Assembly (NCBI RefSeq): GCF_000186265.1
Contig: NC_014934.1
Location: forward strand, 4,278,001 to 4,342,000
Direction of reading: 5' to 3'
Length of the DNA: 64,000 nucleotides
Source of the DNA: Cellulophaga algicola DSM 14237
GTDB lineage: Bacteria; Bacteroidota; Bacteroidia; Flavobacteriales; Flavobacteriaceae
Shown: positions 9,241 through 35,256 of the stretch, one piece after another
How positions within the stretch are numbered: the first letter of the stretch is position 1
Layout: every line of letters begins with the position of its first letter
Notes under the pieces: model-generated
Seen by the model: only the letters and a program-made list of their open reading frames with translations
Told to the model about the DNA's origin: nothing
Database searches by the model: none
Program-made: the position numbers and the translations under genes

Positions 9241-9248
9241 AATAAATA

Positions 9249-13418: not shown

Positions 13419-13868
13419 ATGGCTAGTAATTTTGGAATAGGTGCTAATGATGTTAAAGGCGATGCAAGTGAAGCTCTAAATGAAATTCCACAAAACAGAA
13501 CTTTAATTGCAGGTAAATTAACTCCGAACACACCAATTAAGCCAGAAGTAATAGAAGGTTTGAGAACTGTAGAAGATATTTTTGAACATTTTAGACCAGA
13601 ATTAAAAGTTCCTTTTGAAGATAAAAATGGTGGAACGATTAACGAGACTATAAAATTCAAAAATTTAGGCGATTTCGGAAAAAAAGGAATTACCAATAAT
13701 AGTGTTTTCTTAAAAGAATTAGAAATTGAAAGTGATCAATATAAAAAAATCATTAAGCAATTAAAGACTAATAAAATTCTAAAATCTGCATTACAAGATC
13801 CTGAAGCTAAAGGAGCGTTAATAGATACTATTGATGCATTGATTAATGAAATTAAAAACACTAAATAA
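13419..13868 (+). CDS. tssB: T6SS sheath small subunit TssB
   Basis: The 149-aa product fits TssB (VipA), which pairs with TssC to build the contractile sheath. The TssB-type core is seen as KPEVIEGLRTVEDIFEHFRP followed by ELKVPFEDKNGG, then FKNLGDFGKKGI (residues about 45-90) and a long C-terminal helical part. It is 15 bases upstream of tssC, the normal order. The start ATG follows an AT-rich leader after the tssD1 terminator, so tssBC may have a separate promoter. Confidence 0.93.
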   Translation: MASNFGIGANDVKGDASEALNEIPQNRTLIAGKLTPNTPIKPEVIEGLRTVEDIFEHFRPELKVPFEDKNGGTINETIKFKNLGDFGKKGITNNSVFLKELEIESDQYKKIIKQLKTNKILKSALQDPEAKGALIDTIDALINEIKNTK

Positions 13869-13883
13869 TTACGAAAAGCAATT

Positions 13884-15242: not shown

Positions 15243-15264
15243 AATGCAATTTTAGTACGTATAC

Positions 15265-15306
15265 CAACACCTCTAAGGCATTCTTGTTTTAGAGGTGTTG
15301 TCTTTT
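15265..15306 (+). terminator. Intrinsic terminator after tssC
   Basis: A perfect 12-bp stem pairs CAACACCTCTAA (15265-15276) with TTAGAGGTGTTG (15289-15300) around a 12-base loop, and is followed by a T-rich stretch (TCTTTTG). It closes the tssB-tssC unit 22 bases after the stop. Confidence 0.8.
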
Positions 15307-15400
15307 GAGAAATAAATCGATGTAATTTATCGACTTTTTTTTGATACTACTATATTAGAACGTACATTAACCTTTGATAATTATATTAATAACATAACCT

Positions 15401-15790
15401 ATGTCTTTTTTAGCAAAATTAATTGTAGATGGTCAAGAATACAATGTATTACATTGTAACTATAATTTTGAACAACCCATGGATCATACCGGTAAACCTT
15501 CGGGAAAACCAAGAGGTGGTCAAATAATGATTACTATAGAATCTCAAGGAAAATCTGATCTTTTTCATTGGATGATGGAACCAGAACAAACCAAAGATGG
15601 GGCTATCATATTTTATAAGCGCGATGCATTATCACGTTTACAAGAAGTAACCTTTACCCAAGCATTTTGTGTAAGTCTTGAGGAAGAATTTGACGCTATA
15701 GATGATGTGCCTATGCAGAAAACGATTGTAATCTCTGCTACTACCATTACAATTGGTGACATGACATTTGAAAATAGTTGGGGAGAGTAA
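15401..15790 (+). CDS. tssD: Second T6SS tube protein TssD (Hcp)
   Basis: This 129-aa TssD/Hcp paralogue shares the pattern of tssD1: LIVDGQEYNVLHCNYNFEQ, then DHTGKPSGKPRGGQIMITIE. Many positions differ, and it ends TFENSWGE. It stands alone downstream of the tssC terminator and 50 bases before the candidate effector gene. In T6SS biology small Hcp proteins bind and stabilise cargo in the tube lumen, so a divergent Hcp next to an effector suggests a cargo-dedicated tube subunit. That link is inferred from position. Confidence 0.93.
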   Translation: MSFLAKLIVDGQEYNVLHCNYNFEQPMDHTGKPSGKPRGGQIMITIESQGKSDLFHWMMEPEQTKDGAIIFYKRDALSRLQEVTFTQAFCVSLEEEFDAIDDVPMQKTIVISATTITIGDMTFENSWGE

Positions 15791-18263: not shown

Positions 18264-19256
18264 ATGAAGAAAAACTACTTTTTTTTAATAGTATTTTTAA
18301 TTATGTGCAGCATTTCTGCTCAGGATACTGCTAAGACATTAACTATAGAAGCTAATGAGTTTACCACAGTTACGCTATTTTTTCCTTTAAGTATTGACAA
18401 AGTTATTCCTCCTGCAAGTAATTATAAATTTGAGATGGATCAAGGCAAAATGCTAGGTACCTTAAAAGCTAGAAAAGGACCAGCTAGTAACATGACTGTT
18501 ATTACTACCGACGGAAAAATATTTTCAATACTCGTTAATTATTCAGAAAAACTAGATAAGTATAACTATATTATAAATGAAAATCAAGCGCTTGGTAGTA
18601 AAATACCTAAAGCTGTTGAAAATCCTATAACACAAACACCTTCTGGTGACAAAATTATGCCACCGAAAGTAACTACAACACCAGGTCCTATAGAATCACC
18701 TATTACAACTTTAGTAAATACTGCCCCAGATAAGATTGATCCAATTCCAGATGTTTCAAATAGCCTTTTAAATAAACCAAAAGAAGATCCTATTGAATAC
18801 GCTAATTCTGAAAGTGATTTGTATAATTCTGATAGAGAAGAATATTACCGCATTTTTTGTGAAAACAATTACCTTCAAAAAAGTATTTTAAAAAGAAGTT
18901 TTCGTCAGAATAAAAAAATTATCGTTCGATTGAATAATATTCTAGTAGATCGTGATGAAATATATTTTATGCTTTCTTTAGAGAATACTTCTAAGAAAGA
19001 TTACAATGTTAACGATCTTAGTTTTTTCATAAAAGAAAGTCAGCGGGATAACAATCCTCTAATTTTGGAACCCGTTCATACCTTTAATTTGCAAAAAATT
19101 ATTGATAGAGAAAGTGACAATGAAATTGTATACGTTTTTAAAAAATTCTCTTTAGAAACAAATCAAATTTTAGAAATTGTTCTAGACGAAATTGATAGTT
19201 CTAGATTCGTACTTCTTCCCTTAGATTACAAATATTTAAACTTATTATCTAAATGA
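18264..19256 (+). CDS. traN: TraN-like protein (DUF4138), outside any conjugative element
   Basis: I start at ATG 18264 (330 aa) because this gives a clean signal peptide (MKKNYFFLIVFLIMCSISAQ), while an earlier TTG at 18198 would add an unlikely leader. The N-terminal domain (about 22-115) has the TraN pattern TTVTLFFPLSIDKV, then NMTVITTDGKIFSILVNY. A Pro/Thr-rich linker (about 125-185) leads to a C-terminal domain with IIVRLNNILVDRDEIYFMLS and a FKKFSLETNQILEIVLDE segment, both typical of Bacteroidota conjugative-transposon TraN. TraN is a periplasmic/outer-membrane part of the mating apparatus. Here it overlaps the traO-like gene by 4 bases, and no other transfer genes except TraQ-like ones are present. 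Confidence 0.8.
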   Translation: MKKNYFFLIVFLIMCSISAQDTAKTLTIEANEFTTVTLFFPLSIDKVIPPASNYKFEMDQGKMLGTLKARKGPASNMTVITTDGKIFSILVNYSEKLDKYNYIINENQALGSKIPKAVENPITQTPSGDKIMPPKVTTTPGPIESPITTLVNTAPDKIDPIPDVSNSLLNKPKEDPIEYANSESDLYNSDREEYYRIFCENNYLQKSILKRSFRQNKKIIVRLNNILVDRDEIYFMLSLENTSKKDYNVNDLSFFIKESQRDNNPLILEPVHTFNLQKIIDRESDNEIVYVFKKFSLETNQILEIVLDEIDSSRFVLLPLDYKYLNLLSK

Positions 19257-19789
19257 AATATTTTTTATTGCTAGTTATATTATTAGTATCAAATTTTATT
19301 CACGCACAGGCTTTTTCTAATTCCGTAATGGGTACAATCGGGAAGTTTGGAGAAGGATATGGAGGCGAAATGACCTTTAATACAAATTTAGATGAATACT
19401 CCTTTACGCAGATAGCATTAGATGTTTCGTTATCAAGTTATACGTCAGGAGAGGTCTCTATTCCGTATTCAAGTTATACCGTTTCCTATTCGTATTTTAC
19501 AACACTTTATGCTACTGCAAGAAGATATAAAGTACTAAGCATTGGTGCGGGATTATTAACTGGTTATGAATTAGTTAATGGAGGAAATAATGCGTTTTCA
19601 AATATTGTTTTTTTAGATGGACAAAGTAAGTTAATCTACGGAGCAACAGTAGGAGCAGAAATAGATGTTATTATTAGCAACCGATTGTCTGTGGTAGCTA
19701 AAACTTCAGAGTTCTACCATATGAATAGTGATTTTGGTCAGTTTACAAACTTTACCGGAATAGGAATCCGTTACTACTTTTTTAGGTAA
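19253..19789 (+). CDS. traO: TraO-like outer-membrane beta-barrel protein
   Basis: The 178-aa product has a signal peptide ending near FIHAQA and a series of alternating amphipathic strands closing with GIGIRYYFFR, the terminal aromatic strand of a small outer-membrane beta-barrel. Length, signature and direct linkage to a TraN homologue (ATGA overlap) fit TraO of Bacteroides-type conjugative transposons. It is followed after 9 bases by the first TraQ-like lipoprotein, so the order N-O-Q of conjugative elements is kept, with the usual TraP primase missing. A generic porin-like barrel is the alternative. Confidence 0.68.
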   Translation: MKYFLLLVILLVSNFIHAQAFSNSVMGTIGKFGEGYGGEMTFNTNLDEYSFTQIALDVSLSSYTSGEVSIPYSSYTVSYSYFTTLYATARRYKVLSIGAGLLTGYELVNGGNNAFSNIVFLDGQSKLIYGATVGAEIDVIISNRLSVVAKTSEFYHMNSDFGQFTNFTGIGIRYYFFR

Positions 19790-19798
19790 ATCCAATTT

Positions 19799-22141
19799 AT
19801 GAAGTTAAACTACAGGTATATTTTTACATTTTTAGTATCATTAGCAGTCATCATTGCATGTACAAAAGAAGTGGGACTCTATACAGAAGTAGAATTTGAA
19901 ATTAGCGAAACGCACGAAGCAGACGGATTCATAAATACACCTTTAGCGACTTCAATAACCGTTACGCCAGAAGAACTGGTAGAAGGATATTCCTATTCGT
20001 ATTCCTATAAAATTAATTCAGGCGAAGGATATTTTCAAGATGAAGCGGGAACTACTATTCCCGAAGGAGATAAGATTGGTTTGAGTCCATTATCAACGGC
20101 ATTAAACTATATAGCCACAAAAATAGGAGATCACTCCATCACTTTTACGGCTGAAGATACTTTTGGTTTTCAGGAGCAGGTTACTGCATCTTACACTATC
20201 AGTGATGTTCCTGTAACTTGGACGGCCACAGGACCTTCAGGACAAGTACTTTTAGGTAGCTCACAAGATATTACAGTTATTTTAGGTGAAACTACAGCTA
20301 CAGGAGTTACCTATGAACGTAATTATTCCTTTACACGGGGAACAGGTACTATAACTTCTTCTCCAAGTGAACCAAGTGAGACTTTAAATGAATTTGTTAG
20401 CATTACTCCAGGTACGTTTACACTAACCTATGTAGCTACCGAAATAGGACAAACAACTTTAGAATTTTTGTTAAGAGATTCAAACGGACAAGAAATTGTC
20501 CAAACGGTAAGCTTTGAGGTGGTTGATGAACTTGATACTACTGCTCCAGTAATTACTTTAATTGGAGGTGATATTTCTTTAGCGGTAGGTGAAACATATA
20601 CCGATCAAGGAGCTACAGCTACGGACAATTTGGATGGTGATATTACCAATAATATTGTTATTGTTAACCCTGTAGATACAAGTGTTCCTGACACCTATAT
20701 CCTAACGTATAATGTAACAGATGCAGCTGGGAACGATGCCGTACCAGTGACTAGAACAGTGACAATTACTAGTCAAGAAGAAGATAGTACTAAACCTGTA
20801 ATTATTTTAATAGGCGATGATATTACCATAACAGTTGGAGATACGTATACCGATCAAGGAGCTACCGCAAATGATGATGTTGATGGAGATATCACAAGTG
20901 ATATTTCAATTGTTGATCTAGTAGATACTAATGTAGCTGGCACTTATACAGTTACTTATAATGTAACGGATGCAGCAGGTAATGAAGCTACGGAAGTTAC
21001 GAGAACAGTTATAGTTTCTGATGCTCCAGACACAACCGCTCCAATAATTACCAGAAACGGACCTGCGTCTATTTCCTTGACAGTCGGAGATACATACAGT
21101 GATGCAGGTGCTACTGCTTTAGATGATATAGATGGCGATATCACAGGTGACATCTCAAGTGTTGATCTTGTAGATCCTAATATAGCAGGCACTTATACAG
21201 TAACTTATAATGTTTCTGATGCAGCAGGTAATGATGCTACAGAAGTGACAAGAACAGTTATTGTTTCTCCTGCTCCAGACACAACCGCTCCTGTAATTAC
21301 CAGAAACGGACCTGCGTCTATTTCCTTGACAGTCGGAGATACATACAGTGATGCAGGTGCTACTGCTTTAGATGATATAGATGGCGATATTACCAGTGGA
21401 ATCAATGTTATTGATCCTGTCGACCCTAATGTTGCAGGTACTTATACAGTTACTTACAATGTTACAGATGCGGCAGGTAATGATGCTACGGAAGTAACAA
21501 GAACAGTTATTGTTTCTCCTCAGTCAATAATTTTACCAACAGTTAATGCTGGTGCTAATCAAATAATTACGTTACCAGCAAACTCAGTGATATTGGCAGG
21601 ATCTGCTACTGATGCAGACGGAATATCAAATTATTCTTGGACTAAAACAAGTGGAGGTGCAGCTACAATTGTTACACCAACTGCAGCGACAACTTCTGTA
21701 AACGATTTATTGGAAGGCACTTACACCTTTAGGCTTACGGCAACTGATAATTTAGGTAGCGAAAACTTCGCTGAAGTGGAAGTGATTGTCAATCCACAAC
21801 CCATAACTTCAGTCACGTTTGATCTTGCCACAGGAGAATATACTGCTCCTGCAGGTTCTATAGTTACTGTTATTTTATATTCGGAAGGTTCGGAAAAGGG
21901 TAACGCTAGTGTAGACGTACATACTTTATCTCTTAATACAGCTTGGAACGAAAACGAAGGTGAGGCTTTTGTTGAAATTGAGGAAGGAGATTTTATTATG
22001 CCCTTATCGGGTGTTGTTTTTTTTACTGGTAATCATTTAGAGATATTAGGTAGTTCAGAATCATATGTAACTATTAATAATAATGAAGGACCTACGATGT
22101 ATTTCTCTCTGGCAATGGGCCTTTCGATGCCACAAGATTAA
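19799..22141 (+). CDS. TraQ-anchored repeat lipoprotein 1 (DUF5011 stalk)
   Basis: This 780-aa lipoprotein (lipobox VIIAC, Cys 21) is first of five paralogues. Residues about 25-138 and 139-243 are two related TraQ/DUF3872-like domains. The first shows YKINSGEGYFQDE and the motif ITFTAEDTFGFQEQ, the second LEFLLRDSNGQEIVQTVSFE. The stalk is four DUF5011 Ig-like repeats (about 247-575, each with GDTYTDQGATA and TYTVTYNVTDAAGN-type cores), then one REJ/PKD-like unit (about 579-668). The last 110 residues form a tip like that of the fourth paralogue (GEYTAPAGS, ending GLSMPQD). It is probably a surface fibre anchored through TraO/TraN. There is no T9SS C-terminal domain. Confidence 0.82.
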   Translation: MKLNYRYIFTFLVSLAVIIACTKEVGLYTEVEFEISETHEADGFINTPLATSITVTPEELVEGYSYSYSYKINSGEGYFQDEAGTTIPEGDKIGLSPLSTALNYIATKIGDHSITFTAEDTFGFQEQVTASYTISDVPVTWTATGPSGQVLLGSSQDITVILGETTATGVTYERNYSFTRGTGTITSSPSEPSETLNEFVSITPGTFTLTYVATEIGQTTLEFLLRDSNGQEIVQTVSFEVVDELDTTAPVITLIGGDISLAVGETYTDQGATATDNLDGDITNNIVIVNPVDTSVPDTYILTYNVTDAAGNDAVPVTRTVTITSQEEDSTKPVIILIGDDITITVGDTYTDQGATANDDVDGDITSDISIVDLVDTNVAGTYTVTYNVTDAAGNEATEVTRTVIVSDAPDTTAPIITRNGPASISLTVGDTYSDAGATALDDIDGDITGDISSVDLVDPNIAGTYTVTYNVSDAAGNDATEVTRTVIVSPAPDTTAPVITRNGPASISLTVGDTYSDAGATALDDIDGDITSGINVIDPVDPNVAGTYTVTYNVTDAAGNDATEVTRTVIVSPQSIILPTVNAGANQIITLPANSVILAGSATDADGISNYSWTKTSGGAATIVTPTAATTSVNDLLEGTYTFRLTATDNLGSENFAEVEVIVNPQPITSVTFDLATGEYTAPAGSIVTVILYSEGSEKGNASVDVHTLSLNTAWNENEGEAFVEIEEGDFIMPLSGVVFFTGNHLEILGSSESYVTINNNEGPTMYFSLAMGLSMPQD
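21029..21526 (+). repeat. Tandem 249-bp direct repeat in DUF5011 region
   Basis: Two adjacent 249-bp units starting at 21029 and 21278 are nearly identical over their first 120 bases (both begin GACACAACCGCTCC) and diverge later. They encode the third and fourth DUF5011 domains of lipoprotein 1. Near identity at DNA level indicates a recent in-frame duplication. Confidence 0.8.
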
Positions 22142-22149
22142 AAAAAAAA

Positions 22150-24813
22150 ATGAAAATCACAACTAAATATATATTAGGTTTAATTGCTATTTTAGCAGTC
22201 ATCATTGCGTGTACCAAAGAAGTGGGACTATACACTGAAGTAGAATTTGAAATTTCAGAAACTCATGTGGCAAATGGTTTTATCAATACACCGCTAGCGA
22301 CTTCTATTACCGTTACACCAGAAGAACTAGTGGAAGGATATTCGTATTCCTTTTCGTATAAGATTAATACAGGCGAGGGATATTTTCAAGATGAAACGGG
22401 AAATACTATTCCCGAAGGAGATAAGATTGGTTTGAATCCATTATCAGCGACATTAAATTATATTGCTACAAAAATAGGAGATCACTCCATCACTTTTACC
22501 GCAGAAGATACTTTTGGTTTTCAGGAGCAGGTTACTGCATCTTACACTATCAGTGATGTTCCTGTTTCTTGGACTGCTACAGGACCTACGGGACAAGTTT
22601 TATTAGGTACATCACAAGATATCTCTGTTACTTTAGGGAATGAAACTACTGCAACAGGAGTTACGTATGAACGGAATTATTCCTTTACAGAAGGAACAGG
22701 TACAATAACTTCTTCTCCAAGAGGAACAAGCGAAACTTTAAATGAATTTGTTAGTATTACACCAGGGGCATATGCTTTAGAATATGTATCTACCGAATTA
22801 GGGCAGACCACGCTAGAGTTTTTATTGAAAGATTCAAACGGACAAGAAATAGTCCAAACCGTAAGTTTTGAAGTTGTAGATGAACTTTCTACAGAAAAAG
22901 AAATTACTTCCTTTATAGTAAACGGAGTAGTAGGTACTATTAGTGGAACTACCATCGATGTTGTTCTTCCAGAAGGAACAGATGTAACAGCCTTAGCACC
23001 AGTAATTACACACACAGGAGCAAGTATTTCGCCAGAATCAGAAACAAGTCAAGATTTTTCGAATCCTGTAATCTATACCGTTGCTGCTCAAGATCAAACG
23101 ATACAAGAATATACCGTTACTTTAACTGTCGAAGGAAATGAAGCCAAAGATATCACTGATTTTGCAATTGATGGTGTTGATGGAATTATTACAGGAACCA
23201 ATATTTCCGTAACCTTACCAGCAGGAACAGATGTTACCTCATTAAGTTCTACGGTAACTCATACTGGTGCTTCTGTAAACCCTACTTCTGGAGTAGCGCA
23301 AGACTTTACAAGCCCTGTGGAGTATACCGTTACCGCAGCAGATGGAACTACTAAAGTGTATACTGTTACGGTGAGTTTAGCCCCAGCTCTTAGTAGTGAT
23401 AATAACATTACATCATTTAGTATTGATGGAGTTGCTGGCGTCATTTCAGGAACAACAATTACCGTAACACTTCCTGCAGGAACAGATGTAAGTAGTCTAA
23501 CGCCTGCTATAATTCATACTGGTAATACGGTAAATCCAGATACTGGAATAGCTCAAGATTTTACAAACCCGATTACTTATACGGTGACAGCTGCTAACTT
23601 AGATACTCAAGAATACTCGGTAACGGTTATTATGCCTACCCTTAGTGATACGAAGGATATTACATCATTTAGTATTGATGGAGTTGCTGGTGTTATTTCC
23701 GGAACAACAATTACGGTGACACTTCCTGCAGGAACAGATGTAAGCAGTTTAACGCCTGCTATAAATGATAATGGAAATACAGTAAATCCAAATACAGGAG
23801 TAGCTCAAGATTTTACAAATCCTGTAGAATACACTGTTACCGCAGCAGATACTACGACTAAAACATATACTGTTACGGCTATTATTTCAGCTGCTGTTAA
23901 CATAGATCCTGTAGCTATTGATGACAACTTTACAGTAATAGAAAATTCTCCAAATAACACATTAGATGTTCTTGATAATGATAGTGATCCTGATGGAACT
24001 GTTTTAACTATTGTAGCTCTAGAAACACCTATAAATGGTAGCGCAACGATTGCACCTGGAGGACAATCAATATTATATACGGCTACCACAGGAAATGATA
24101 GATTTGACTATACCATTGAAGATGAAGATGGAGCTACTACTATGGGTACCATTGATGTTAATGTAGTTCCAAATGAAAATCCTACAGTAGAAATTGACGA
24201 TTTAATTTTAATACCTAATGGGAATTTTCCTAAAACGATAAGTTTTGCGGTGGCTAATTCAAATGACACTGATGGAACCATTGAAAATTATGAATGGAAT
24301 TTTGGTGATCCTAGTTCTACAGGAAATATAATAAACAATACAGATTCAAACGCTACCTCACATACTTTCAATAGTGCTGGCACCTATAATATCGTTTTAA
24401 CAGTCACTGATAATCTCGGAGCTACAGGGTCTGATACTGTTCGAATTACTCTAGAAGAACCATTAGCGCCAGATTTTACTTTTACAGCTAACACTTACCA
24501 ACCACAACCTATAGATGGTCATACAAAAGGAGGTCCAATTGAATTATATTTTAGTATAAATCCTAATGCTGCTTTAGATGGAGGAAATTATATTATGACC
24601 ATGGAAACAGGAAAAGCAACCTTAAAGATAAATGGATCAACCTATAGAGAAGTTATTAATATTCCTATGACTACGACTCCTGTTATAGGACCCTTTACAG
24701 ATTTATTATTTAACAATGAAGTTACTGTTACATTTAGGGTTATTGAAATGATTAGCGGAATTGAAAAAACTAGAACTTTATTTTTCACCTATTGTGATGG
24801 TTTGTGTCCATAA
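22150..24813 (+). CDS. TraQ-anchored repeat lipoprotein 2 (DUF5018 stalk)
   Basis: This 887-aa paralogue begins 8 bases after the first. It has the same lipobox (VIIAC, Cys 21) and the same two TraQ-like domains (25-245), with DNA stretches identical to paralogue 1 (for example around 22500-22560). The stalk differs: four DUF5018 repeats (246-581, core VTLPAGTDVTSL and VEYTVTAADGTTK), one cadherin-like repeat (582-676, LDVLDNDSDPDGT) and one PKD domain (676-770, YEWNFGDPSS). The C-terminal tip of about 110 residues ends FTYCDGLCP and resembles the tip of paralogue 3. It is a likely alternative surface fibre sharing the same anchor. Confidence 0.82.
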   Translation: MKITTKYILGLIAILAVIIACTKEVGLYTEVEFEISETHVANGFINTPLATSITVTPEELVEGYSYSFSYKINTGEGYFQDETGNTIPEGDKIGLNPLSATLNYIATKIGDHSITFTAEDTFGFQEQVTASYTISDVPVSWTATGPTGQVLLGTSQDISVTLGNETTATGVTYERNYSFTEGTGTITSSPRGTSETLNEFVSITPGAYALEYVSTELGQTTLEFLLKDSNGQEIVQTVSFEVVDELSTEKEITSFIVNGVVGTISGTTIDVVLPEGTDVTALAPVITHTGASISPESETSQDFSNPVIYTVAAQDQTIQEYTVTLTVEGNEAKDITDFAIDGVDGIITGTNISVTLPAGTDVTSLSSTVTHTGASVNPTSGVAQDFTSPVEYTVTAADGTTKVYTVTVSLAPALSSDNNITSFSIDGVAGVISGTTITVTLPAGTDVSSLTPAIIHTGNTVNPDTGIAQDFTNPITYTVTAANLDTQEYSVTVIMPTLSDTKDITSFSIDGVAGVISGTTITVTLPAGTDVSSLTPAINDNGNTVNPNTGVAQDFTNPVEYTVTAADTTTKTYTVTAIISAAVNIDPVAIDDNFTVIENSPNNTLDVLDNDSDPDGTVLTIVALETPINGSATIAPGGQSILYTATTGNDRFDYTIEDEDGATTMGTIDVNVVPNENPTVEIDDLILIPNGNFPKTISFAVANSNDTDGTIENYEWNFGDPSSTGNIINNTDSNATSHTFNSAGTYNIVLTVTDNLGATGSDTVRITLEEPLAPDFTFTANTYQPQPIDGHTKGGPIELYFSINPNAALDGGNYIMTMETGKATLKINGSTYREVINIPMTTTPVIGPFTDLLFNNEVTVTFRVIEMISGIEKTRTLFFTYCDGLCP

Positions 24814-24888
24814 TTATTTTACAGCGTATCAACCTAAATATAAACCATCCTTTTCAATAATTTAAATATTGAAATAATATAAACACCC

Positions 24889-27825: not shown

Positions 27826-27860
27826 ATTTGAATATTACTATTCCACGATAAGTATATTAT

Positions 27861-30800
27861 ATGAAAATCACAACTAAATATATACTAGCCTCAATTGCTC
27901 TACTAGCTTTAATCATAGCCTGTACCAAAGAGGTAGGCTTATACACAGAAGTAGAATTTGAAATTACAGAGGAACATGAGGTTGATGGATTTATTAATAA
28001 TCCATTAGCGACTTTCTTGACGGTGACTCCTGAGGAATTATTAGAAGATCTTAGTTATTCTTTTTCGTATAAAATAAATTCTGGAGCGGGGTATTTTGAA
28101 GCTGTTGACGGAACTATAATTCAAGAAGGAGAAAAAGTTTCTTTTAATCCACTTTCTGCTTCATTAGATTATATTCCAACTTCGATAGGAGATCATTCGG
28201 TAACTTTTACCGCATCAGATACTTTTGGTTTTACAGAAGAAATTACCCTTACCTATACCATTACGAATATTCCAGTTACGTGGACAGCCGAAGGACCTAC
28301 GGGGCCAGTACTACTAGGAAGTTCTCAAAGTATTACAGTGACCTTAGGAAATGAAGCGGCAATAACAGGAGCAACCTACCAAAGAAATTATTCGTTCTCT
28401 GAAGGCTCAGGGAATTTATATACCGCGGCTCCTGAAAGCAATACTATTGCGGTGAATGATTTTGTAAGCATTGCACCAGGAACCTATCAATTAGAATATA
28501 TCTCTAATGAATTAGGGGTTACAACGATTGAGTTCTTATTAAGAGATAGTAACGAACAAGAATTAATAGCTACCGTTAGTTTTGAAGTGGTTGATAAACT
28601 TTCTACTGAAAAAGAAATTACTTCATTTATAGTAAATGGAATAGCAGGGACTATCACAGGAACTACTATCGATGTGGTACTTCCTGAAGGAACTGATTTA
28701 ACAGCCTTAGCTCCTATAATTATACATACTGGAGCAAGTATTTCGCCTGAATCAGAAATAAATCAAGATTTTTCGAATCCTGTAATTTATACCGTTACCG
28801 CTCAAGATGAAACCATACAAGCTTATACTGTGAATTGTAGTAGTAATATTTCTGTAGCTAGTGTAGCGATAGCTCCAAATCCTGTAACTATTAATATAGG
28901 GGAAACAGAAAATTTAAGTGCTGCAACTACTCCTACAAATGCTACCAATCAAAATGTAACATGGAGCTCTAGTGATGATGCTATCGCATCCGTAAGTGCT
29001 ACGGGTATAGTAACAGGAAATGCAATAGGAACTGCAACTATTACAGTAACTACGGAAGATGGCGGATTTACAGCTACTTCGGCTATAACCGTTCAAGCGG
29101 CAACCTTTGCTGTTACGGGAATAACGGTTGATCCAACAGCGATAACCATCACGAATGGAAGTACCACAACATTAAATGAAACTATTGCTCCTGCTAATGC
29201 AACGAATCAAAATGTAACATGGAGCTCTAGTGATGATGCTATTGCATCCGTAAGTGCTACGGGTGTGGTAACAGGAAATGCCATAGGAACTGCAACTATT
29301 ACAGTAACTTCGGAAGATGGCGACTTTACAGCAACCTCTACCATAACCGTTCAAGCGGCAACTTTTGCTGTAACAGGCATAACGGTTGATCCAACAGCGA
29401 TAACCATTACGAATGGCAGTACCACAACATTAAATGAAACTATCGCTCCTGCTAATGCAACGAATCAAAATGTAACATGGTCTTCTAGTGATGATGCTAT
29501 TGCATCCGTGAGTGCTACGGGTGTAGTAACAGGAAACGCCATAGGAACTGCAACAATCACAGTAGCTACGGAAGATGGAGGATTTACGGCAACCTCTACC
29601 ATAACCGTTCAAGCGGCAACTTTTGCTGTTACGGGAATAACGGTTGATCCAACAGCGATAACCATTACGAATGGAAGTACCACAACATTAAATGAAACTA
29701 TTGCTCCTGCTAATGCTACCAATCAAAATGTGACATGGAGCTCTAGTGATGATGCTATTGCATCCGTGAGTGCTACGGGTGTAGTAACAGGAAATGCAAT
29801 AGGAACTGCAACAATCACAGTAACCACTGAAGATGGAGGATTTACGGCAACCTCTACCATAACCGTTCAAGCGGCAACTTTTGCTGTTACGGGAATAACG
29901 GTTGATCCAACAGCGATCACCATTACCAATGGAAGTACCACAACATTAAATGAAACTATTGCTCCTGCTAATGCAACGAATCAAAATGTAACTTGGAGTT
30001 CTGATAATACTAGTGTGGCTACTGTCAATACTAGTGGATTAGTAACTAGTGTAGGTGTTGGAGAAGCCAAAATTACAGTAACCACGGAAGATGGCGGATT
30101 TACAGCTACTTCGGCTATAACCGTTCAAACGGCAACCTTTGCTGTTACGGGAATAACGGTTGATCCAACAGCGATAACCATTACGAATGGAAGCACCACA
30201 ACATTAACGGAAACTATTGCTCCTGCTAATGCAACGAATCAAAATGTAACATGGAGTTCGGATAATACTAGCGTGGCTACTGTCAATGCTAGTGGATTAG
30301 TAACTAGTGTAGGAGTAGGAGAAGCCAAAATTACAGTAACCACTGAAGATGGTGGATTTACAGCAACTTCTTTAGTAACTGTAGAAGCTGCTGCTATAGC
30401 TGTGACAAGTGTTTCTATTTCTCCAACATCAATCACCATTACAAATGGAAGTACCACAACATTAACAGGAACTATTGCTCCTGCTAATGCAACGAACCAA
30501 AATGTAACTTGGAGTTCTGATAATACTAGTGTGGCTACTGTGAATACTAGCGGAGTAGTTACTAGCGTAGGTGTTGGAGAAGCCAAAATTACGGTAACCA
30601 CTCAAGATGGCGGATTTACAGCTACTTCTTTAGTAACTGTAGAAGATGATTCTATAGCTGTAACTAGTGTTTCTATTTCTCCAACAGCGATAACCATTAC
30701 AAATGGAAGTACCACTACATTAACAGGAACTATTGCTCCTACTAATGCAACGAATCAAAATGTGACTTGGTCTTCTAGTAACACATCCTTAGCAACAGTG

Positions 30801-32348
30801 AATGCCACAGGCCTGGTGACAGGAGTAGGTGTGGGATCCGCTATTATTACAATTACTACTGAAGATGGTAATTTTTTCGCCAATTCTTTAATTACTGTAA
30901 ATACTCCTCCTATTCCCGTAACAAGTGTTAGTGTTGATCCATTATCGATAATGATAACAGAAGGAAATACAACAATGTTAAACGAAATTATTTTACCTGC
31001 AAATGCTACTGATAAAGATGTAACTTGGAGTTCAGATGATATAACTGTAGCAATTGTTGATGCAAGCGGCGTAGTAACTGGAGTTGGAGTTGGAACAGCA
31101 ATTATTACGGTAACTACAGATGATGGAAATAAAACAGCTACGTCAAACATAACCGTGGAGGCTATTACTGTAACATTACCAAATGTTACAGTTGGTATAA
31201 ATCAGATAATTACATTACCTACAAACTCAGTCACGTTAACAGGATCTGCTACCGATTCGGATGGAATAGCTACTTACACATGGACTAAGATAAGTGGAGG
31301 CGGATCTACAATTGTTACGCCAACTGCAGCGTCAACTTTAGTTACAGGTTTGCTGGAAGGGACTTATATCTTTAGACTTACAGCAACCGATAATTTAGGA
31401 AGTGAAAACTTCGCAGAAGTAGAAGTTATTGTTAATCCTGCGCCTATAACTTTACCAACCGTTAATGCTGGTTCAAATCAAACAATTACATTACCAACAA
31501 ACTCAGTGATGTTGGCAGGATCTGCTACTGATGCAGATGGAATATCAACTTACGCTTGGACTAAAATAAATGGAGGTATAGCTACAATTGTAACACCTTC
31601 TGATGCATCAACTTCAATAACGAGTTTGGTTGCAGGTGCTTATATCTTTAGACTTACAGCAACCGATAATTTAGGAAGTGAAAACTTCGCAGAAGTAGAA
31701 GTTATTGTTAATCCTGCACCAATAACTTTACCAACTGTTAATGCTGGTTCAAATCAAACAATTACACTACCAACAAATTCTGTGATGTTGGTAGGATCTG
31801 CTACTGATGCAGACGGAATATCAACTTACGCTTGGACTAAAATAAGTGGAGGTATAGCTACAATTGTAACACCTTCTGCTGAATCAACTTCAATAACGGG
31901 TTTGATTGCAGGCACCTATACATTTAGACTTACAGCAACTGATAATTTAGGTAGTCAAAATTTTGCTGAAGTGGATGTAATTGTTAAACCACAACCGGCA
32001 CCCTCAGTTACATTTGATCCAACAACGGGTGTTTATACTGCACCTGCTGGATCGACGGTTACTGTAAATTTGACAACACAGGGTGTGGGCAAAGGCAATG
32101 CATGGGTTAATATAGTAGAGATTAGTTCAAATATTAATACAAGCTGGAATGGCTTAGAAGATGAAATGTTTCTAGAAAGTGATACAGATTCTTTCATTAT
32201 GCCTGCTTCTGGTGTTGTAACTTTTGAAGGAAATCATTTTGATACATTTAATCTTTCATTTGGTTCTTCCTCTGTTGAAATTTTTAATAATCAAGGAGGA
32301 CCAGCAATTGGTTTCAATATGGACCGCAATATTGCAATGCCTCAATAA
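27861..32348 (+). CDS. TraQ-anchored repeat lipoprotein 4, giant Big_2 stalk
   Basis: At 1495 aa this is the largest paralogue. It has lipobox LIIAC (Cys 21), a TraQ-like pair (25-247) of a second subtype shared with paralogue 5 (EITEEHEVDGFINNPLATF), and one DUF5018 repeat (about 250-328). Nine Big_2 bacterial Ig-like repeats of exactly 86 aa each follow (330-1103, core NATNQNVTWSS and GTATITVTTEDGGFTATS), then three REJ/PKD-like units of 92 aa (1104-1379, ATDNLGSENFAEVEVIV). A tip (1380-1495, ending NIAMPQ) is homologous to that of paralogue 1. Big_2 domains are common in intimin/invasin-like adhesins, so an adhesive fibre is likely. The ligand is unknown. Confidence 0.85.
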   Translation: MKITTKYILASIALLALIIACTKEVGLYTEVEFEITEEHEVDGFINNPLATFLTVTPEELLEDLSYSFSYKINSGAGYFEAVDGTIIQEGEKVSFNPLSASLDYIPTSIGDHSVTFTASDTFGFTEEITLTYTITNIPVTWTAEGPTGPVLLGSSQSITVTLGNEAAITGATYQRNYSFSEGSGNLYTAAPESNTIAVNDFVSIAPGTYQLEYISNELGVTTIEFLLRDSNEQELIATVSFEVVDKLSTEKEITSFIVNGIAGTITGTTIDVVLPEGTDLTALAPIIIHTGASISPESEINQDFSNPVIYTVTAQDETIQAYTVNCSSNISVASVAIAPNPVTINIGETENLSAATTPTNATNQNVTWSSSDDAIASVSATGIVTGNAIGTATITVTTEDGGFTATSAITVQAATFAVTGITVDPTAITITNGSTTTLNETIAPANATNQNVTWSSSDDAIASVSATGVVTGNAIGTATITVTSEDGDFTATSTITVQAATFAVTGITVDPTAITITNGSTTTLNETIAPANATNQNVTWSSSDDAIASVSATGVVTGNAIGTATITVATEDGGFTATSTITVQAATFAVTGITVDPTAITITNGSTTTLNETIAPANATNQNVTWSSSDDAIASVSATGVVTGNAIGTATITVTTEDGGFTATSTITVQAATFAVTGITVDPTAITITNGSTTTLNETIAPANATNQNVTWSSDNTSVATVNTSGLVTSVGVGEAKITVTTEDGGFTATSAITVQTATFAVTGITVDPTAITITNGSTTTLTETIAPANATNQNVTWSSDNTSVATVNASGLVTSVGVGEAKITVTTEDGGFTATSLVTVEAAAIAVTSVSISPTSITITNGSTTTLTGTIAPANATNQNVTWSSDNTSVATVNTSGVVTSVGVGEAKITVTTQDGGFTATSLVTVEDDSIAVTSVSISPTAITITNGSTTTLTGTIAPTNATNQNVTWSSSNTSLATVNATGLVTGVGVGSAIITITTEDGNFFANSLITVNTPPIPVTSVSVDPLSIMITEGNTTMLNEIILPANATDKDVTWSSDDITVAIVDASGVVTGVGVGTAIITVTTDDGNKTATSNITVEAITVTLPNVTVGINQIITLPTNSVTLTGSATDSDGIATYTWTKISGGGSTIVTPTAASTLVTGLLEGTYIFRLTATDNLGSENFAEVEVIVNPAPITLPTVNAGSNQTITLPTNSVMLAGSATDADGISTYAWTKINGGIATIVTPSDASTSITSLVAGAYIFRLTATDNLGSENFAEVEVIVNPAPITLPTVNAGSNQTITLPTNSVMLVGSATDADGISTYAWTKISGGIATIVTPSAESTSITGLIAGTYTFRLTATDNLGSQNFAEVDVIVKPQPAPSVTFDPTTGVYTAPAGSTVTVNLTTQGVGKGNAWVNIVEISSNINTSWNGLEDEMFLESDTDSFIMPASGVVTFEGNHFDTFNLSFGSSSVEIFNNQGGPAIGFNMDRNIAMPQ
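27921..28835 (+). repeat. 915-bp anchor segment, copy A (partner 32638-33552)
   Basis: From the lipobox Cys codon to the end of the DUF5018 unit this segment aligns with 32638-33552 without any insertion or deletion (constant offset of 4717), with only scattered substitutions, mostly synonymous. The similarity ends sharply where the stalks begin (AYTVN followed by different sequence). It is a recent duplication or a gene-conversion tract. Confidence 0.85.
28848..31169 (+). repeat. Nine tandem 258-bp coding repeats (Big_2 array)
   Basis: Nine units begin at 28848, 29106, 29364, 29622, 29880, 30138, 30396, 30654 and 30912. All are exactly 258 bp. Units 2-4 are almost identical at DNA level (each begins with codons for FAVTGITVDPTAITITNGS), and units become more divergent toward both ends. 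This pattern is expected from unequal crossing-over in the centre of the array. Confidence 0.92.
31170..31997 (+). repeat. Three tandem 276-bp coding repeats (REJ/PKD-like)
   Basis: Three 276-bp units starting at 31170, 31446 and 31722 directly follow the Big_2 array. Units 2 and 3 are nearly identical. A homologous single unit occurs in paralogue 1 at about 21535-21800, so the module has moved between genes. Confidence 0.88.
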
Positions 32349-32370
32349 TAATAATAATAATAATAATAAT
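32344..32370 (+). repeat. AAT trinucleotide microsatellite at a stop codon
   Basis: Nine AAT repeats begin inside the last sense codon of lipoprotein 4 and include its TAA stop, followed by more in-frame TAA codons. Length changes would therefore not alter the protein end, and only the spacing to the next gene would change. The remaining gap to 32577 is AT-rich and shows no gene or clear terminator. Confidence 0.85.
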
Positions 32371-32577
32371 ACATTTTTAAAGCTACTATTGATGTTCTAA
32401 TAAAGATATTAAACTCTTAGAATTTCAGTTAGAAACAATAAAATCATTAAGACTGATATTTAAAGTTTATCTGGGAATAATAAACTGGTTAGAATATGAG
32501 GTATTTTTTATATTTATAAAGTGTAAAGAAGAATAATTGAGATTTCGAGCATTAATCTCTAATTTGATAAATTAGGT

Positions 32578-35256
32578 ATGAAAAATTTTAAAACTTTAGG
32601 GATATCTCTCATTTTAATACTGACTATAATAATAGCCTGTACCAAAGAAGTAGGCTTATACACTGAAGTAGAATTTGAAATTACAGAGGAACATGAGGTT
32701 GATGGATTTATTAATAATCCATTAGCGACTTTCTTGATAGTTACTCCTGAGGAACTATTAGAAGATCTTAGTTATTCTTTTTCGTATAAAATAAATTCTG
32801 GAGCGGGGTATTTTGAAGCTGTTGACGGAACTATAATTCAAGAAGGAGAAAAAGCTTCTTTTAATCCACTATCTGCTTCATTAGATTATATTCCAACTTC
32901 GATAGGAGATCATTCGGTAACTTTTACCGCATCAGATACTTTTGGTTTTACAGAAGAAATTACCCTTACCTATACCATTACGAATATTCCAGTTACGTGG
33001 ACAGCCGAAGGACCTACGGGGCCAGTACTACTAGGAAGTTCTCAAAGTATTACGCTGACCTTAGGAAATGAAGCGGCAATAACAGGAGCAACCTATCAAA
33101 GAAATTATTCGTTCTCTGAAGGCTCAGGGAATTTATATACCGCGGCTCCTGAAAGCAATACTATTGCGGTGAATGATTTTGTAAGCATTGTACCAGGAAC
33201 CTATCAATTAGAATATATCTCTAATGAATTAGGCATTACCACTATTGAGTTTTTACTTAGAGATAGTAATGAACAAGAATTAATAGCTACCGTTACTTTT
33301 GAAGTGGTTGATGAACTTTCTACTGAAAAAGAAATTACTTCATTTATAGTAAATGGAATAGCAGGGACTATTACAGGAACTACTATCGATGTGGTACTTC
33401 CTGAAGGAACTGATTTAACAGCTTTAGCACCCGTAATTATACATACAGGAGCAAGTATTTCGCCCGAATCAGAAATAAATCAAGATTTTTCGAATCCTGT
33501 AATTTATACGGTTACCGCTCAAGATGAAACTATACAAGCTTATACGGTAAATGTAACAGTTCCTTCCGCGAATCAAGCTCCAACAGCAATAGCAACTTCA
33601 GATGTAACTTCTGGCGTTCCTTCCTTAGACGTGCAATTTACAGGAGATACTTCTACTGATCCAGATGCTGGAGATGTATTAACGTATGCTTGGAATTTTG
33701 GAGATGGAAGCACAGCAACAACTGCTAATCCTTCTCACACTTTTACAACCGCAGGAACGTACACGGTAACACTTACTGTTACGGATGATAGAACTCCAGC
33801 TCTCAACAGTACGGATACGATCACGATAATAGTAACAGATGCCAATCAAGCACCAACGGCAATAGCGACTTCTGATGTCACTTCTGGAGAAGTTTCTTTA
33901 GACGTACAATTTACAGGAGATACTTCTACTGACCCAGATACAGGAGATACATTAACCTATGCTTGGAATTTTGGAGATGGAACCACAGCAACAACTGCTA
34001 ATCCTTCTCATACCTTTACAACCGCAGGAACGTACACGGTAACACTTACCGTTACCGATGATGGAACACCGGCTTTGTCTAGTTCAGAGGTTACAATAAC
34101 AATAACCGTAAATGCTCCTGCCAATCAAACACCAACCGCTATAGCCACTTCAGATGTAACTTCTGGCGTTCCTTCCTTAGACGTGCAATTTACAGGAGAT
34201 ACTTCTTCTGATCCAGACACTGGAGATACATTAACATATGCTTGGAATTTTGGAGACGGAACCACAGCAACAACTGCTAATCCTTCTCATACCTTTACTA
34301 CAGTTGGAACGTATACTGTTACACTTACCGTTACCGATAATGGAACACCGGCTTTATCAAGTTCGGAGGTTACAATAACAATAACCGTAAATGCTCCTGC
34401 CAATCAAGCACCAACAGCCGTGGCAGATAATTATTCAGTCATAAAAGGAACTAATAACAATCTATTTAATGTTATTGCAAACGACTCTGACCCAGATGGG
34501 GATACGCTTACGGTTACTCTTGAACTCTTTCCTCTTAACGGTACAGCAACGATGTCAGGTAATCAGGTAAGTTATAGCCCAAATATAAATTTTGTTGGAA
34601 CGGATCAAATTGGATACCAAATAAGTGATGGTAATGGTGGAATGGCTAGCGGATCAATTACTGTAACCGTAACAGGTCCTACTAACCAGGCACCAACAGC
34701 AGTTGCCACAGGGCCAACAGCCACAATTACAGGAGTTGTTGAAAATTTTTATGCAGATTCATCATCAGATCCTGACGGGGACAATTTAACTTATTTGTGG
34801 GATTTTGGAGATACAACCACTTCAAATTTAATAAATCCAACACATAGTTATACAACGGTAGGAACCTATACGGTTACCTTAACTGTTACCGATAATGGTT
34901 CTCCCGTTCTTAGTGATTCTGAAGTAATTTTGATTAATGTTACGGGAGCTACACCAACAGCCACATTTAGTAATTCACAAATAGTCACCGATGCAAATCC
35001 ATCAACACAAGGAATACTAACTATTAATAATGGAAATATATCTTTTACTATTAATATTTTTGGTGGCACAGGATCGGGAGGAGTTAGTTTAATATTTACA
35101 ATTCTGGGTGTTGATACATGGAATGTATATGCTGATCAAGGAGATGTAAATAATTCAATTACAGATTTGATACCACCAGGTACTTACAATTACTATATTG
35201 ACATATTTACAGTAGCTGGAGGAAGTGATAGTTCTGGATCAGTAATAGCTAACTAA
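32578..35256 (+). CDS. TraQ-anchored repeat lipoprotein 5 (PKD stalk)
   Basis: This 892-aa paralogue has lipobox IIIAC (Cys 21) and an anchor (25-247) plus one DUF5018 repeat almost identical to paralogue 4. It then switches to three PKD domains (332-608, YAWNFGDGTTAT and TYTVTLTVTD cores), a cadherin-like unit (about 609-700, NVIANDSDPDGD), a fourth PKD (about 703-795, YLWDFGDTT) and a unique tip ending GSVIAN. A 229-base gap separates it from paralogue 4, wider than other gaps in the operon, so it may have its own promoter. Its last 8 bases overlap the end of recG on the other strand. Confidence 0.82.
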   Translation: MKNFKTLGISLILILTIIIACTKEVGLYTEVEFEITEEHEVDGFINNPLATFLIVTPEELLEDLSYSFSYKINSGAGYFEAVDGTIIQEGEKASFNPLSASLDYIPTSIGDHSVTFTASDTFGFTEEITLTYTITNIPVTWTAEGPTGPVLLGSSQSITLTLGNEAAITGATYQRNYSFSEGSGNLYTAAPESNTIAVNDFVSIVPGTYQLEYISNELGITTIEFLLRDSNEQELIATVTFEVVDELSTEKEITSFIVNGIAGTITGTTIDVVLPEGTDLTALAPVIIHTGASISPESEINQDFSNPVIYTVTAQDETIQAYTVNVTVPSANQAPTAIATSDVTSGVPSLDVQFTGDTSTDPDAGDVLTYAWNFGDGSTATTANPSHTFTTAGTYTVTLTVTDDRTPALNSTDTITIIVTDANQAPTAIATSDVTSGEVSLDVQFTGDTSTDPDTGDTLTYAWNFGDGTTATTANPSHTFTTAGTYTVTLTVTDDGTPALSSSEVTITITVNAPANQTPTAIATSDVTSGVPSLDVQFTGDTSSDPDTGDTLTYAWNFGDGTTATTANPSHTFTTVGTYTVTLTVTDNGTPALSSSEVTITITVNAPANQAPTAVADNYSVIKGTNNNLFNVIANDSDPDGDTLTVTLELFPLNGTATMSGNQVSYSPNINFVGTDQIGYQISDGNGGMASGSITVTVTGPTNQAPTAVATGPTATITGVVENFYADSSSDPDGDNLTYLWDFGDTTTSNLINPTHSYTTVGTYTVTLTVTDNGSPVLSDSEVILINVTGATPTATFSNSQIVTDANPSTQGILTINNGNISFTINIFGGTGSGGVSLIFTILGVDTWNVYADQGDVNNSITDLIPPGTYNYYIDIFTVAGGSDSSGSVIAN
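32638..33552 (+). repeat. 915-bp anchor segment, copy B (partner 27921-28835)
   Basis: This is the second copy of the anchor segment, aligned without gaps to 27921-28835. Differences seen include a few codons in the first 150 bases (LTVTPEE versus LIVTPEE) and isolated changes after that. Confidence 0.85.
33571..34401 (+). repeat. Three tandem PKD-coding repeats, about 273-279 bp
   Basis: Units start at 33571, 33844 and 34123, each beginning with codons for NQxPTAIATSDVTSG. Long stretches are identical between units 1 and 3, for example the codons for GVPSLDVQFTGDTS, consistent with recent duplication or conversion. Confidence 0.85.

What the first reader, a model, noticed from the sequence alone, without database searches (positions are those of the whole stretch)
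18264..35256. Orphan TraN-TraO-TraQ module with an expanded set of TraQ-anchored lipoproteins
Homologues of three conjugative-transposon proteins occur in their native order (N, O, Q) as one tight rightward operon (overlap 4, gap 9, gap 8 bases). The coupling protein, relaxase, TraG/J/K/M, primase and integrase are all absent, and TraQ is multiplied to five genes with huge repeat extensions. This suggests that an outer-membrane mating-pair subcomplex was adapted into a stand-alone surface-display or adhesion machine. I know of no described system with this make-up.
Basis: partly seen in the sequence, partly recalled or inferred. Interest (0 to 1): 0.86.

Follow-up and report, generated by a model that had tools for sequence, protein, structure and literature searches.

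The report
Conjugation outer-membrane module beside type VI secretion
Some marine bacteria carry, right beside the genes for a contact-killing weapon (type VI secretion), genes related to the outer-membrane part of a DNA-transfer machine plus long repeat-rich surface proteins, which may help the weapon reach or hold its victims.

Summary
In detail: TraN/DUF4138 (18264-19256), TraO (19253-19789) and five lipoproteins with a TraQ N-terminus and Ig/PKD/Big arrays; no TraG in the complete genome. It is not stand-alone: it lies just downstream of a Bacteroidota type VI secretion cluster, T6SSiii, at 907-15790. The long TraN occurs in 11 of 397 sampled Flavobacteriaceae genomes, all among the 44 with T6SSiii TssC. 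Of 22 genomes seen with it, 19 have a T6SS gene within 0.3-7.3 kb. The TraN tree largely agrees with the TssN tree, and dN/dS indicates purifying selection. The TraN model's best structural matches are T4SS outer-membrane-core chains, at moderate confidence; TraO models as an OmpA-like barrel. Best reading: a conjugation-derived outer-membrane module taken up by one T6SSiii lineage, holding TraQ-anchored fibres that dock prey, or forming the outer part of a membrane complex in which TssR was not found. The T6SS association is well supported; the docking role is inferred. The papers seen do not describe it.

The parts
18264..19256 (+). TraN1: TraN/DUF4138-like protein with N-terminal hydrophobic helix, two predicted beta domains and a disordered linker; predicted fold nearest T4SS outer-membrane-core chains
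   Evidence: Pfam DUF4138 1.8e-15; NCBIfam TraN below cut-off; AF2 model, pLDDT 69.6; Foldseek
19253..19789 (+). TraO: predicted small 8-stranded outer-membrane beta-barrel
   Evidence: Pfam TraO 1.3e-16; AF2 model with 8 strands, pLDDT 77.7; OmpA-like in Foldseek
19799..22141 (+). TraQ-anchored lipoprotein Q1 (780 aa): TraQ N-terminus, surface-Ig repeats, PKD, C-terminal tip
22150..24813 (+). TraQ-anchored lipoprotein Q2 (887 aa): DUF5018, Big_9, PKD repeats and tip
24889..27825 (+). TraQ-anchored lipoprotein Q3 (978 aa): DUF5018, Big_9, PKD
27861..32348 (+). TraQ-anchored lipoprotein Q4 (1495 aa): nine Big_2 and three PKD-like stretches
32578..35256 (+). TraQ-anchored lipoprotein Q5 (892 aa): PKD and Big_9 array
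15401..15790 (+). Hcp/TssD, last recognised T6SS gene before the module
   Evidence: Pfam TssD 3.7e-50
13884..15242 (+). TssC sheath protein of T6SSiii
   Evidence: Pfam TssC 9.8e-232
13419..13868 (+). probable TssB
   Evidence: position beside tssC and conserved order; not scanned with a family model
12904..13290 (+). second Hcp/TssD
   Evidence: Pfam TssD 3.5e-50
11722..12747 (+). probable TssP: N-terminal hydrophobic stretch plus two PKD stretches
   Evidence: Pfam PKD_4 5.1e-17; sequence; architecture as published for TssP
11034..11657 (-). NlpC/P60 lipoprotein of the T6SS cluster, likely peptidoglycan hydrolase
   Evidence: Pfam NLPC_P60 7.6e-28
10121..11032 (-). probable TssG (by position beside tssN)
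   Evidence: no family match; conserved order; published tssK-tssN-tssG order
9249..10115 (-). TssN
   Evidence: Pfam 1.7e-79
8098..9264 (-). probable TssK
   Evidence: NCBIfam TIGR03353 1.4e-10 and Pfam T6SS_VasE 0.00048, both below cut-off; conserved order
7574..8086 (-). TssO
   Evidence: Pfam 4.7e-38
5106..7571 (-). TssH/ClpV-type ATPase
   Evidence: Pfam AAA_2 1.1e-56, ClpB_D2-small 2.2e-13
4663..5094 (-). TssE (gp25-like)
   Evidence: Pfam GPW_gp25 1.4e-10
2786..4648 (-). probable TssF
   Evidence: Pfam T6SS_TssF 0.00062, below cut-off; conserved order
907..2688 (-). VgrG/TssI
   Evidence: Pfam Phage_base_V 4e-21, Phage_GPD 1.2e-14

Best explanation
The operon is an accessory envelope module of the adjacent T6SSiii, derived from the outer-membrane part of a Bacteroidota conjugation system. 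TraN (VirB9-like, periplasmic) and TraO (8-stranded barrel) form an outer-membrane platform at or near the T6SS exit. The TraQ N-terminal domain of each lipoprotein docks on that platform. The Ig/PKD/Big array lifts a variable C-terminal tip off the surface, so the lipoproteins act as prey-docking fibres, as mating-pair stabilisers would in conjugation. Shown here: family identities, T6SS linkage, largely shared descent, purifying selection, modular make-up of the lipoproteins. Predicted: the folds of TraN and TraO. Inferred: physical contact with the T6SS, surface display, prey binding.
For: Family matches. T6SSiii cluster adjacent. T6SS genes followed by TraN-TraO-TraQ in Cellulophaga, Zobellia, Pricia and unnamed Flavobacteriaceae; nearest T6SS gene 0.3-7.3 kb from TraN in 19 of 22 genomes. 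Long TraN in 11 of 397 family genomes, all 11 with T6SSiii TssC, 0 of 353 without (Fisher 9e-12, inflated by relatedness). In G156 and G364, where the T6SS is split, TraN-TraO-TraQ stays 0.3 kb from tssC although tssN is 141 kb away or on another contig. TraN1 and TssN trees share their supported groups. dN/dS within Cellulophaga: TraN1 0.09-0.23, TraO 0-0.17. Foldseek's four best hits for TraN are T4SS outer-membrane-core chains; TraO is OmpA-like. All 40 TraQ lipoproteins share the mature start CTK[EDQ], and their C-terminal stretches fall into 10 clusters, the two largest shared across genera. Adhesin-type repeats in 7 of 7 lipoproteins tested from other genomes. Published analogue: TasL, a T6SS-associated FnIII lipoprotein needed for prey contact.
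Against: 33 of 48 T6SSiii+ genomes examined lack T6-type TraN, so the module is not needed for T6SSiii as such. In G470 it lies 185 kb from tssC, and in L156 no T6SS gene is within 10 kb. No experiment shows interaction, surface display or prey binding. The TraN model is of middling confidence (pLDDT 69.6, pTM 0.42), whole-chain TM-scores are low, and many of the further Foldseek hits are clathrin-adaptor ear domains of the same general fold. The TssC tree places G470, G156 and G364 differently from the TraN1 tree, and supports the module-bearing group only weakly. Many dS values exceed 1, near saturation.
Confidence: 0.5

Rival explanations
1. Structural rival: TraN-TraO(-TraQ) is an essential outer part of the T6SSiii membrane complex in this lineage, taking the place of the TssR lipoprotein; without it the weapon does not fire. 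It may be true together with the docking role.
For: TssR (PF17643) is not found in any of 15 genomes with the module, and none of the 4 TssR+ genomes has it. In the window cluster TssN, TssO and a TssP-like protein are present; TssN is present in 15 of 15 module genomes. tssR is often next to tssD, and the module sits just after Hcp/tssD here. TssR and TssQ are reported missing or unidentified in 31% and 23% of T6SSiii.
Against: 29 of 48 T6SSiii+ genomes have neither by these models, so absence of TssR does not demand TraN; 0 of 15 against 4 of 33 is not significant (two-sided p 0.29); PF17643 may miss divergent TssR.
Confidence: 0.25
2. Remnant rival: the T6SS once rode on an integrative conjugative element and the tra genes are left-overs without function.
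For: In gut Bacteroidales, GA1 and GA2 T6SS loci lie on ICEs with tra genes beside them, TraO and TraN being listed first among those of GA2. Conjugative-type operons ending in TraN-TraO-TraQ exist in four of the T6SS+ genomes read (one of the four checked with NCBIfam).
Against: Intact reading frames with dN/dS well below 1; kept with TssC where the T6SS is split; up to six TraQ genes; no other tra family among the 43 window proteins scanned; the island lies beside recG and leu genes in several genomes (Pfam-checked in G000 and G290; elsewhere by similarity or gene size).
Confidence: 0.06
3. One reading: a stand-alone surface-display or adhesion machine whose closeness to the T6SS is incidental.
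For: G470 and L156 carry the module away from T6SS genes. TraO-TraQ pairs without TraN beside them occur elsewhere, as in G214 and G253.
Against: No long TraN in 353 family genomes without TssC; adjacency in 19 of 22 genomes and largely shared descent.
Confidence: 0.1
4. Self-protection rival: the lipoproteins act as a shield, decoy or exclusion coat on the bearer against incoming T6SS attack or conjugation, not as docking fibres.
For: Multiplied, variable lipoproteins next to T6SS genes would also fit a shield; no direct test here.
Against: That TraN and TraO are kept with the fibres points to a machine-bound role (inference); the published precedent is for contact.
Confidence: 0.09

Closest known systems
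Bacteroidota T6SSiii with TssNQOPR membrane complex (Bongiovanni 2024, PMC10781749; abstract, introduction, first results sections, evolution section, first part of the discussion and T6SS-identification methods read)
   Same: TssC, Hcp, TssN, TssO, TssP-like, ClpV-type, VgrG, TssE in one cluster
   Different: TssR (PF17643) not found, TssQ not recognised; TraN-TraO-TraQ beside Hcp; the parts read do not mention Tra proteins
Conjugative-transposon transfer region of Bacteroidota
   Same: TraN, TraO, TraQ families in the order N, O, Q
   Different: No TraG in the genome; no other tra family among the window proteins scanned; TraN on a separate branch from 14 conjugative-type TraN; lipoproteins carry long adhesin-type arrays
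T4SS outer-membrane core complex (VirB7-VirB9-VirB10)
   Same: TraN's best Foldseek hits are chains of such complexes; a paralogue of TraN matches Pfam TraK_N just over cut-off. That these chains are the VirB9-type subunits is partly recalled
   Different: No VirB10/TraM-like gene recognised in the module; no PDB match by sequence profile
TasL, Vibrio fischeri T6SS-associated lipoprotein adhesin (PMC9040878, abstract and passages read)
   Same: Large repeat-bearing lipoprotein encoded at a T6SS locus
   Different: TasL is a single gene with FnIII repeats, not in an operon; here several lipoproteins share a TraQ-type anchor encoded with TraN and TraO. No sequence comparison with TasL was made
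T6SS on ICEs in gut Bacteroidales (GA1/GA2, PMC4714493, abstract and passages read)
   Same: tra genes close to T6SS
   Different: There several tra genes including TraG, TraK and TraM are listed; here only TraN-TraO-TraQ were found beside the T6SS

Membership tests
T6SSiii | Bacteroidota-type TssC, Hcp, TssN, TssO beside the module | tested here: met
T6SSiii membrane complex TssNQOPR | TssR present | tested here: not met
   PF17643 absent in G000 and in all 15 module genomes; the model rings in 4 of 48 T6SS+ genomes. A divergent TssR is not excluded
T6SSiii membrane complex TssNQOPR | TssQ present | not tested
   no TssQ model was run; no gene of that kind was recognised in the cluster
Conjugative transfer system (Bacteroidota) | TraG/VirB4 ATPase | tested here: not met
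   TIGR03783 absent from the genome; the same model matches a conjugative locus of G290 over its cut-off
Conjugative transfer system (Bacteroidota) | TraN, TraO, TraQ families | tested here: met
   Pfam over cut-offs
Conjugative TraN equivalog (TIGR03780) | score over curated cut-off | tested here: not met
   50.9 against 164.1 bits; but the conjugative-operon TraN of L196 is also below it, 61.1 bits
VirB9-like outer-membrane-core protein | two beta domains of VirB9 fold | tested here: inconclusive
   Foldseek ranks 1-4 and 8 are T4SS core chains, E 7.8e-7 to 4e-4, but most of the other 16 hits with E up to 0.001 are adaptor ear domains, the model is of middling confidence, and whole-chain TM-scores are low
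TasL-type T6SS-associated adhesin lipoprotein | large lipoprotein with repeat array at a T6SS locus | tested here: met
TasL-type T6SS-associated adhesin lipoprotein | mediates prey contact | not testable with these tools
   needs mutants and co-culture

The most novel reading that the evidence does not exclude
A contact-killing T6SS has taken over the outer-membrane core of a conjugation machine: TraN-TraO form a T4SS-derived outer-membrane collar at the T6SS exit in a lineage where TssR was not found, and TraQ has become a set of exchangeable tail fibres fixed to the weapon itself, so that prey binding and firing happen at the same spot.
Probability: 0.33. Interest if true: 0.86.

Novelty: new variant of a known kind. 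Interest (0 to 1): 0.72.

Why it matters
It links two secretion machines thought separate: relatives of the outer-membrane part of conjugation appear as lasting companions of one T6SS lineage. It offers candidates for the outer-membrane part in T6SSiii systems reported to lack TssR. It also makes testable the question raised for TasL, whether prey-binding lipoproteins sit at the weapon or anywhere on the surface, because here a shared anchor is encoded beside the weapon.

Tried and rejected
Orphan adhesion machine: rejected as the main reading because of T6SS linkage.

ICE remnant: considered seriously after reading the GA1/GA2 passages; disfavoured by selection, TraQ number and shared descent.

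Strict replacement of TssR: kept only as a rival, because 29 of 48 T6SSiii+ genomes have neither TssR nor T6-type TraN by these models and the exclusion is not significant (p 0.29).

Led nowhere: PDB sequence searches with the TraN and TraO profiles gave no match. The pdb_via library was not available. The first TraN literature search was swamped by words beginning 'tran' and was redone with whole words. Two Flavobacterium columnare papers that name T6SS and tra genes only tabulate them as separate T4SS and T6SS components in the passages seen.

Not counted as T6SS modules: TraO hits in 30 of 70 T6SS+ genomes are a mixture. In the loci read, those of G302, G456, G156 (second copy) and G290 (second copy) sit behind conjugative-type genes, and that of G036 behind a MobC-like gene. 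NCBIfam was run on only one of those operons (L196 = G290), where TraG is over its cut-off while TraJ, TraK, TraM and TraN matches are below theirs, and on the G036 gene; the other operons are judged by gene order and size. G293 (TssO-TraO-TraQ), G299 (fusion) and G387 (TraN variant) rest on one genome each; the first two stand at or near contig ends.

Rows dropped or weak: pairs with dS of 2 or more were not printed in the first part (TraN1: 14 of 15 pairs of six Cellulophaga shown), and the G005-G016 pair gives dN of zero for several genes. Three TraQ rows cut at the end of a stretch (G004_000, G028a_021, G470n_000) remain in the 40, so their 'tips' are not true tips; five of the ten tip clusters are single rows. 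G364 has no TssN row (14 of 15 genomes compared). My notebook says 41 TraQ lipoproteins; searches give 40. The label 'conjugative' for 14 TraN, and for the 97 genomes that match only at low score in short frames (109 with a match, minus 11 with long TraN, minus G387, whose relative lies in a T6SS operon), is mine by score and length, not by reading each locus; G299, also among these 97, carries a TraN-TraO fusion near an Hcp gene. The genome-contig scan started from two peptide patterns only, and may leave out genomes close to the window's. The genus name Cellulophaga for the window is inferred: the contig of same-genus handle G016 has the same length as that of C. baltica DSM 24729.
Full report
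1. The observation. The five lipoproteins and the two genes before them are as described. Pfam, all over gathering cut-off: DUF4138 1.8e-15 for 18264-19256, TraO 1.3e-16 for 19253-19789, TraQ_transposon 8.4e-12 to 4e-7 for the five lipoproteins. NCBIfam's curated TraN model is matched only at 50.9 bits against a cut-off of 164.1. The genome is one contig of 4,888,353 bases rated 100% complete; TraG (TIGR03783) is absent from it. The whole-genome TraQ search reports five stretches: four in Q1-Q3 of the operon and one copy at C1:65173 with an internal stop.

2. What the finding left out. The window from 907 to 15790 is a Bacteroidota-type T6SS: VgrG, TssF, TssE, a ClpV-type ATPase, TssO, TssK, TssN, a probable TssG, an NlpC/P60 lipoprotein, a PKD-bearing TssP-like protein, two Hcp, TssB by position, TssC. 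TssF and TssK score below their cut-offs and are named also by conserved order. TraN begins 2.5 kb after Hcp on the same strand; between them lie a gene and small-lipoprotein pair (15841-17102) that I take for effector and immunity, and a stretch with only short frames.

3. Is the linkage more than chance? In 149 related genomes a match over most of this TraN is found in nine (six of the window's genus and three others), and each of the nine carries a second long paralogue, TraN2, 22-85 kb away in the seven genomes where both lie on one contig. I examined 48 T6SSiii-bearing genomes: the 44 of 397 sampled Flavobacteriaceae with TssC, plus four of the window's genus found and shown to carry the cluster. 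A T6-type TraN (E < 1e-110) is in 15 of 48. Each of the 15 has TraO within 5 bases of TraN, and one to six TraQ lipoproteins after TraO in the stretch fetched, two of the loci being cut there by contig ends. In the 397 genomes the long TraN is in 11, all among the 44 with TssC, and in 0 of 353 without (Fisher p 9e-12; relatedness makes this too small). The profile was built from nine T6SS-linked genomes, but the six hits outside the training set (G156, G290, G311, G364, G462, G470) are all T6SS+, and five of the six lie beside T6SS genes. A scan of one genome for each of 84,980 species, started from two peptide patterns, gave 15 TraN1 loci and one TraN2 locus, from Cellulophaga, Maribacter luteus, Pricia, Zobellia, Pseudozobellia and unnamed Flavobacteriaceae. 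A T6SS gene lies within 10 kb in 13 of the 15. Eight of the 15 repeat genomes already seen (judged from contig lengths), so 22 different genomes were seen, with a T6SS gene 0.3-7.3 kb away in 19. The exceptions are G028 = L161 (contig end, TssC on another contig), G470 (185 kb from TssC) and L156.

4. Descent and selection. The TraN1 and TssN trees of 14 genomes share their well-supported groups; the place of the long-branched G156 is resolved only in the TraN1 tree. The TssC tree makes the module-bearing systems one side of a branch, but with weak support (62/89); it places G470 and the pair G156-G364 differently from the TraN1 tree, and puts G160 and G366, in whose fetched stretches no TraN was found, next to the group. 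G387, whose T6SS operon holds a TraN variant, joins this wider group with support 98/93 but on a long branch. T6-type TraN1 and TraN2 together split from 14 TraN that I label conjugative with support 96/98, consistent with one capture and an early duplication. Within Cellulophaga dN/dS is 0.09-0.23 for TraN1 and 0.03-0.17 for TraO (0 for one near-identical pair), comparable to the TssP-like gene (0.08-0.19, 0 for the same pair) and higher than TssN and TssC (0.01-0.04); many dS values exceed 1 and are near saturation. In G156 and G364 tssC stays with TraN-TraO-TraQ (gap 258 and 288 bases) although tssN is 141 kb away or on another contig. The island lies beside recG and leu genes in G000 and G290 (Pfam), and by similarity or gene size in several relatives.

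5. Parts and likely mechanism. TraO is predicted as an 8-stranded barrel (pLDDT 77.7) whose best matches include OmpA, NspA and OmpX: an outer-membrane anchor too narrow to be the T6SS pore (inference). TraN is predicted as two beta domains (about residues 26-110 and 185-326) with a disordered linker (pLDDT 69.6, pTM 0.42). Foldseek's four best hits, E 7.8e-7 to 1.5e-4, are chains of T4SS outer-membrane-core complexes: F plasmid, another conjugative T4SS, R388 and Xanthomonas citri. Against this, most of the remaining hits with E up to 0.001 are clathrin-adaptor ear domains, so a generic beta-sandwich match is part of the signal. The paralogue TraN2 of this genome matches Pfam TraK_N just over its cut-off (25.0 against 24.8 bits); that F-type TraK is the VirB9 counterpart is recalled. 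All 40 TraQ lipoproteins of the 15 genomes begin CTK[EDQ] and continue to TEVEF. They share an anchor of about 245 residues, then differ in length; their last 115 residues form ten clusters, the two largest with 12 members each and found in several genera, five being single rows. Seven lipoproteins from other genomes all carry Ig, PKD, Big or cadherin-like arrays, six of them with TraQ at E below 1e-5. I read this as anchor, stalk and tip. That the tips bind prey is inference, by analogy with TasL, which is needed for T6SS killing in viscous liquid but not on surfaces, and whose authors ask whether it sits at the weapon.

6. The membrane complex. The published T6SSiii complex is TssNQOPR, with TssR as a possible outer-membrane lipoprotein; TssR was missing or unidentified in 31% of systems, incomplete systems were concentrated in Spirosoma, Hymenobacter and Flavobacterium, and tssR is often next to tssD. 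PF17643 finds TssR in 4 of 48 genomes here and in none of the 15 with the module. That agrees with replacement but does not show it: 29 of 48 have neither, and the exclusion is not significant (p 0.29).

7. Variants. G387: a 607-residue TraN relative with a coiled-coil insert (my reading of the sequence) lies between ClpV and TssE. G299: the N-terminal domain of TraN is joined to a TraO barrel in one frame, next to a lipoprotein and an extended Hcp on a 6.3 kb contig. G293, in another part of the TssC tree: TssK-TssO-TraO-TraQ at a contig end (TraO confirmed). These single cases hint that TraO/TraN parts were recruited more than once. Conversely, a 1118-residue TraQ also exists in a conjugative-type operon of G290, with three TraQ domains and without strong adhesin-repeat matches.

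8. Literature. In the searches I saw no report of TraN, TraO or TraQ as companions of a T6SS outside ICE-borne loci. The limits are real: the library holds open-licence papers, and of long result lists only part was shown (for example 25 of 120, 20 of 296, 12 of 30). DUF3872 is named in two papers, DUF4138 in none (listings only). Two Flavobacterium columnare papers were checked by passage and list tra genes and T6SS separately.

9. Verdict. Observation confirmed, interpretation partly right. It is a T6SSiii variant with a conjugation-derived outer-membrane and fibre module. Association with the T6SS I hold at about 0.85, the prey-docking mechanism at about 0.5.

Noticed in passing
G000 C1:4230874-4231926 (L036:12874-13926), outside the window: Second long TraN paralogue (TraN2) at the far end of the VgrG-effector island, without TraO or TraQ beside it; a TraN2 was found in 13 of the 15 module genomes, not in G156 or G364.
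   Followed up: partly
L001 (G000 C1:63673-67044): A lone TraQ-type lipoprotein gene far from the operon with a stop codon inside it, followed by an open frame with more repeats.
   Followed up: no
L196:5473-16178; similar layout in L187, L188, L195: Conjugative-type operon (TraG over cut-off; TraJ, TraK, TraM, TraN matches below theirs, checked for L196 only) ending in TraO and a 1118-aa TraQ with three TraQ domains; a long TraQ therefore also exists beside transfer genes.
   Followed up: partly
L146:2902-4320: One frame joining a TraN N-terminal domain with a TraO barrel through a charged, probably coiled-coil stretch, next to an Hcp with an extension.
   Followed up: partly
L194:9287-10077: TraO and TraQ genes directly behind TssK-TssO in a different T6SSiii lineage; the contig ends there.
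   Followed up: partly
window 15841-17102: Gene pair between Hcp and TraN: a 292-aa protein, only partly alike in relatives, followed by a small lipoprotein; looks like a T6SS effector and immunity pair, no family match over cut-off.
   Followed up: no
G010 C1:4302783-4310292 (L056-L057): Seven lipoprotein-like genes of 332-338 aa in a row downstream of TraN2, perhaps immunity-type paralogues (guess).
   Followed up: no
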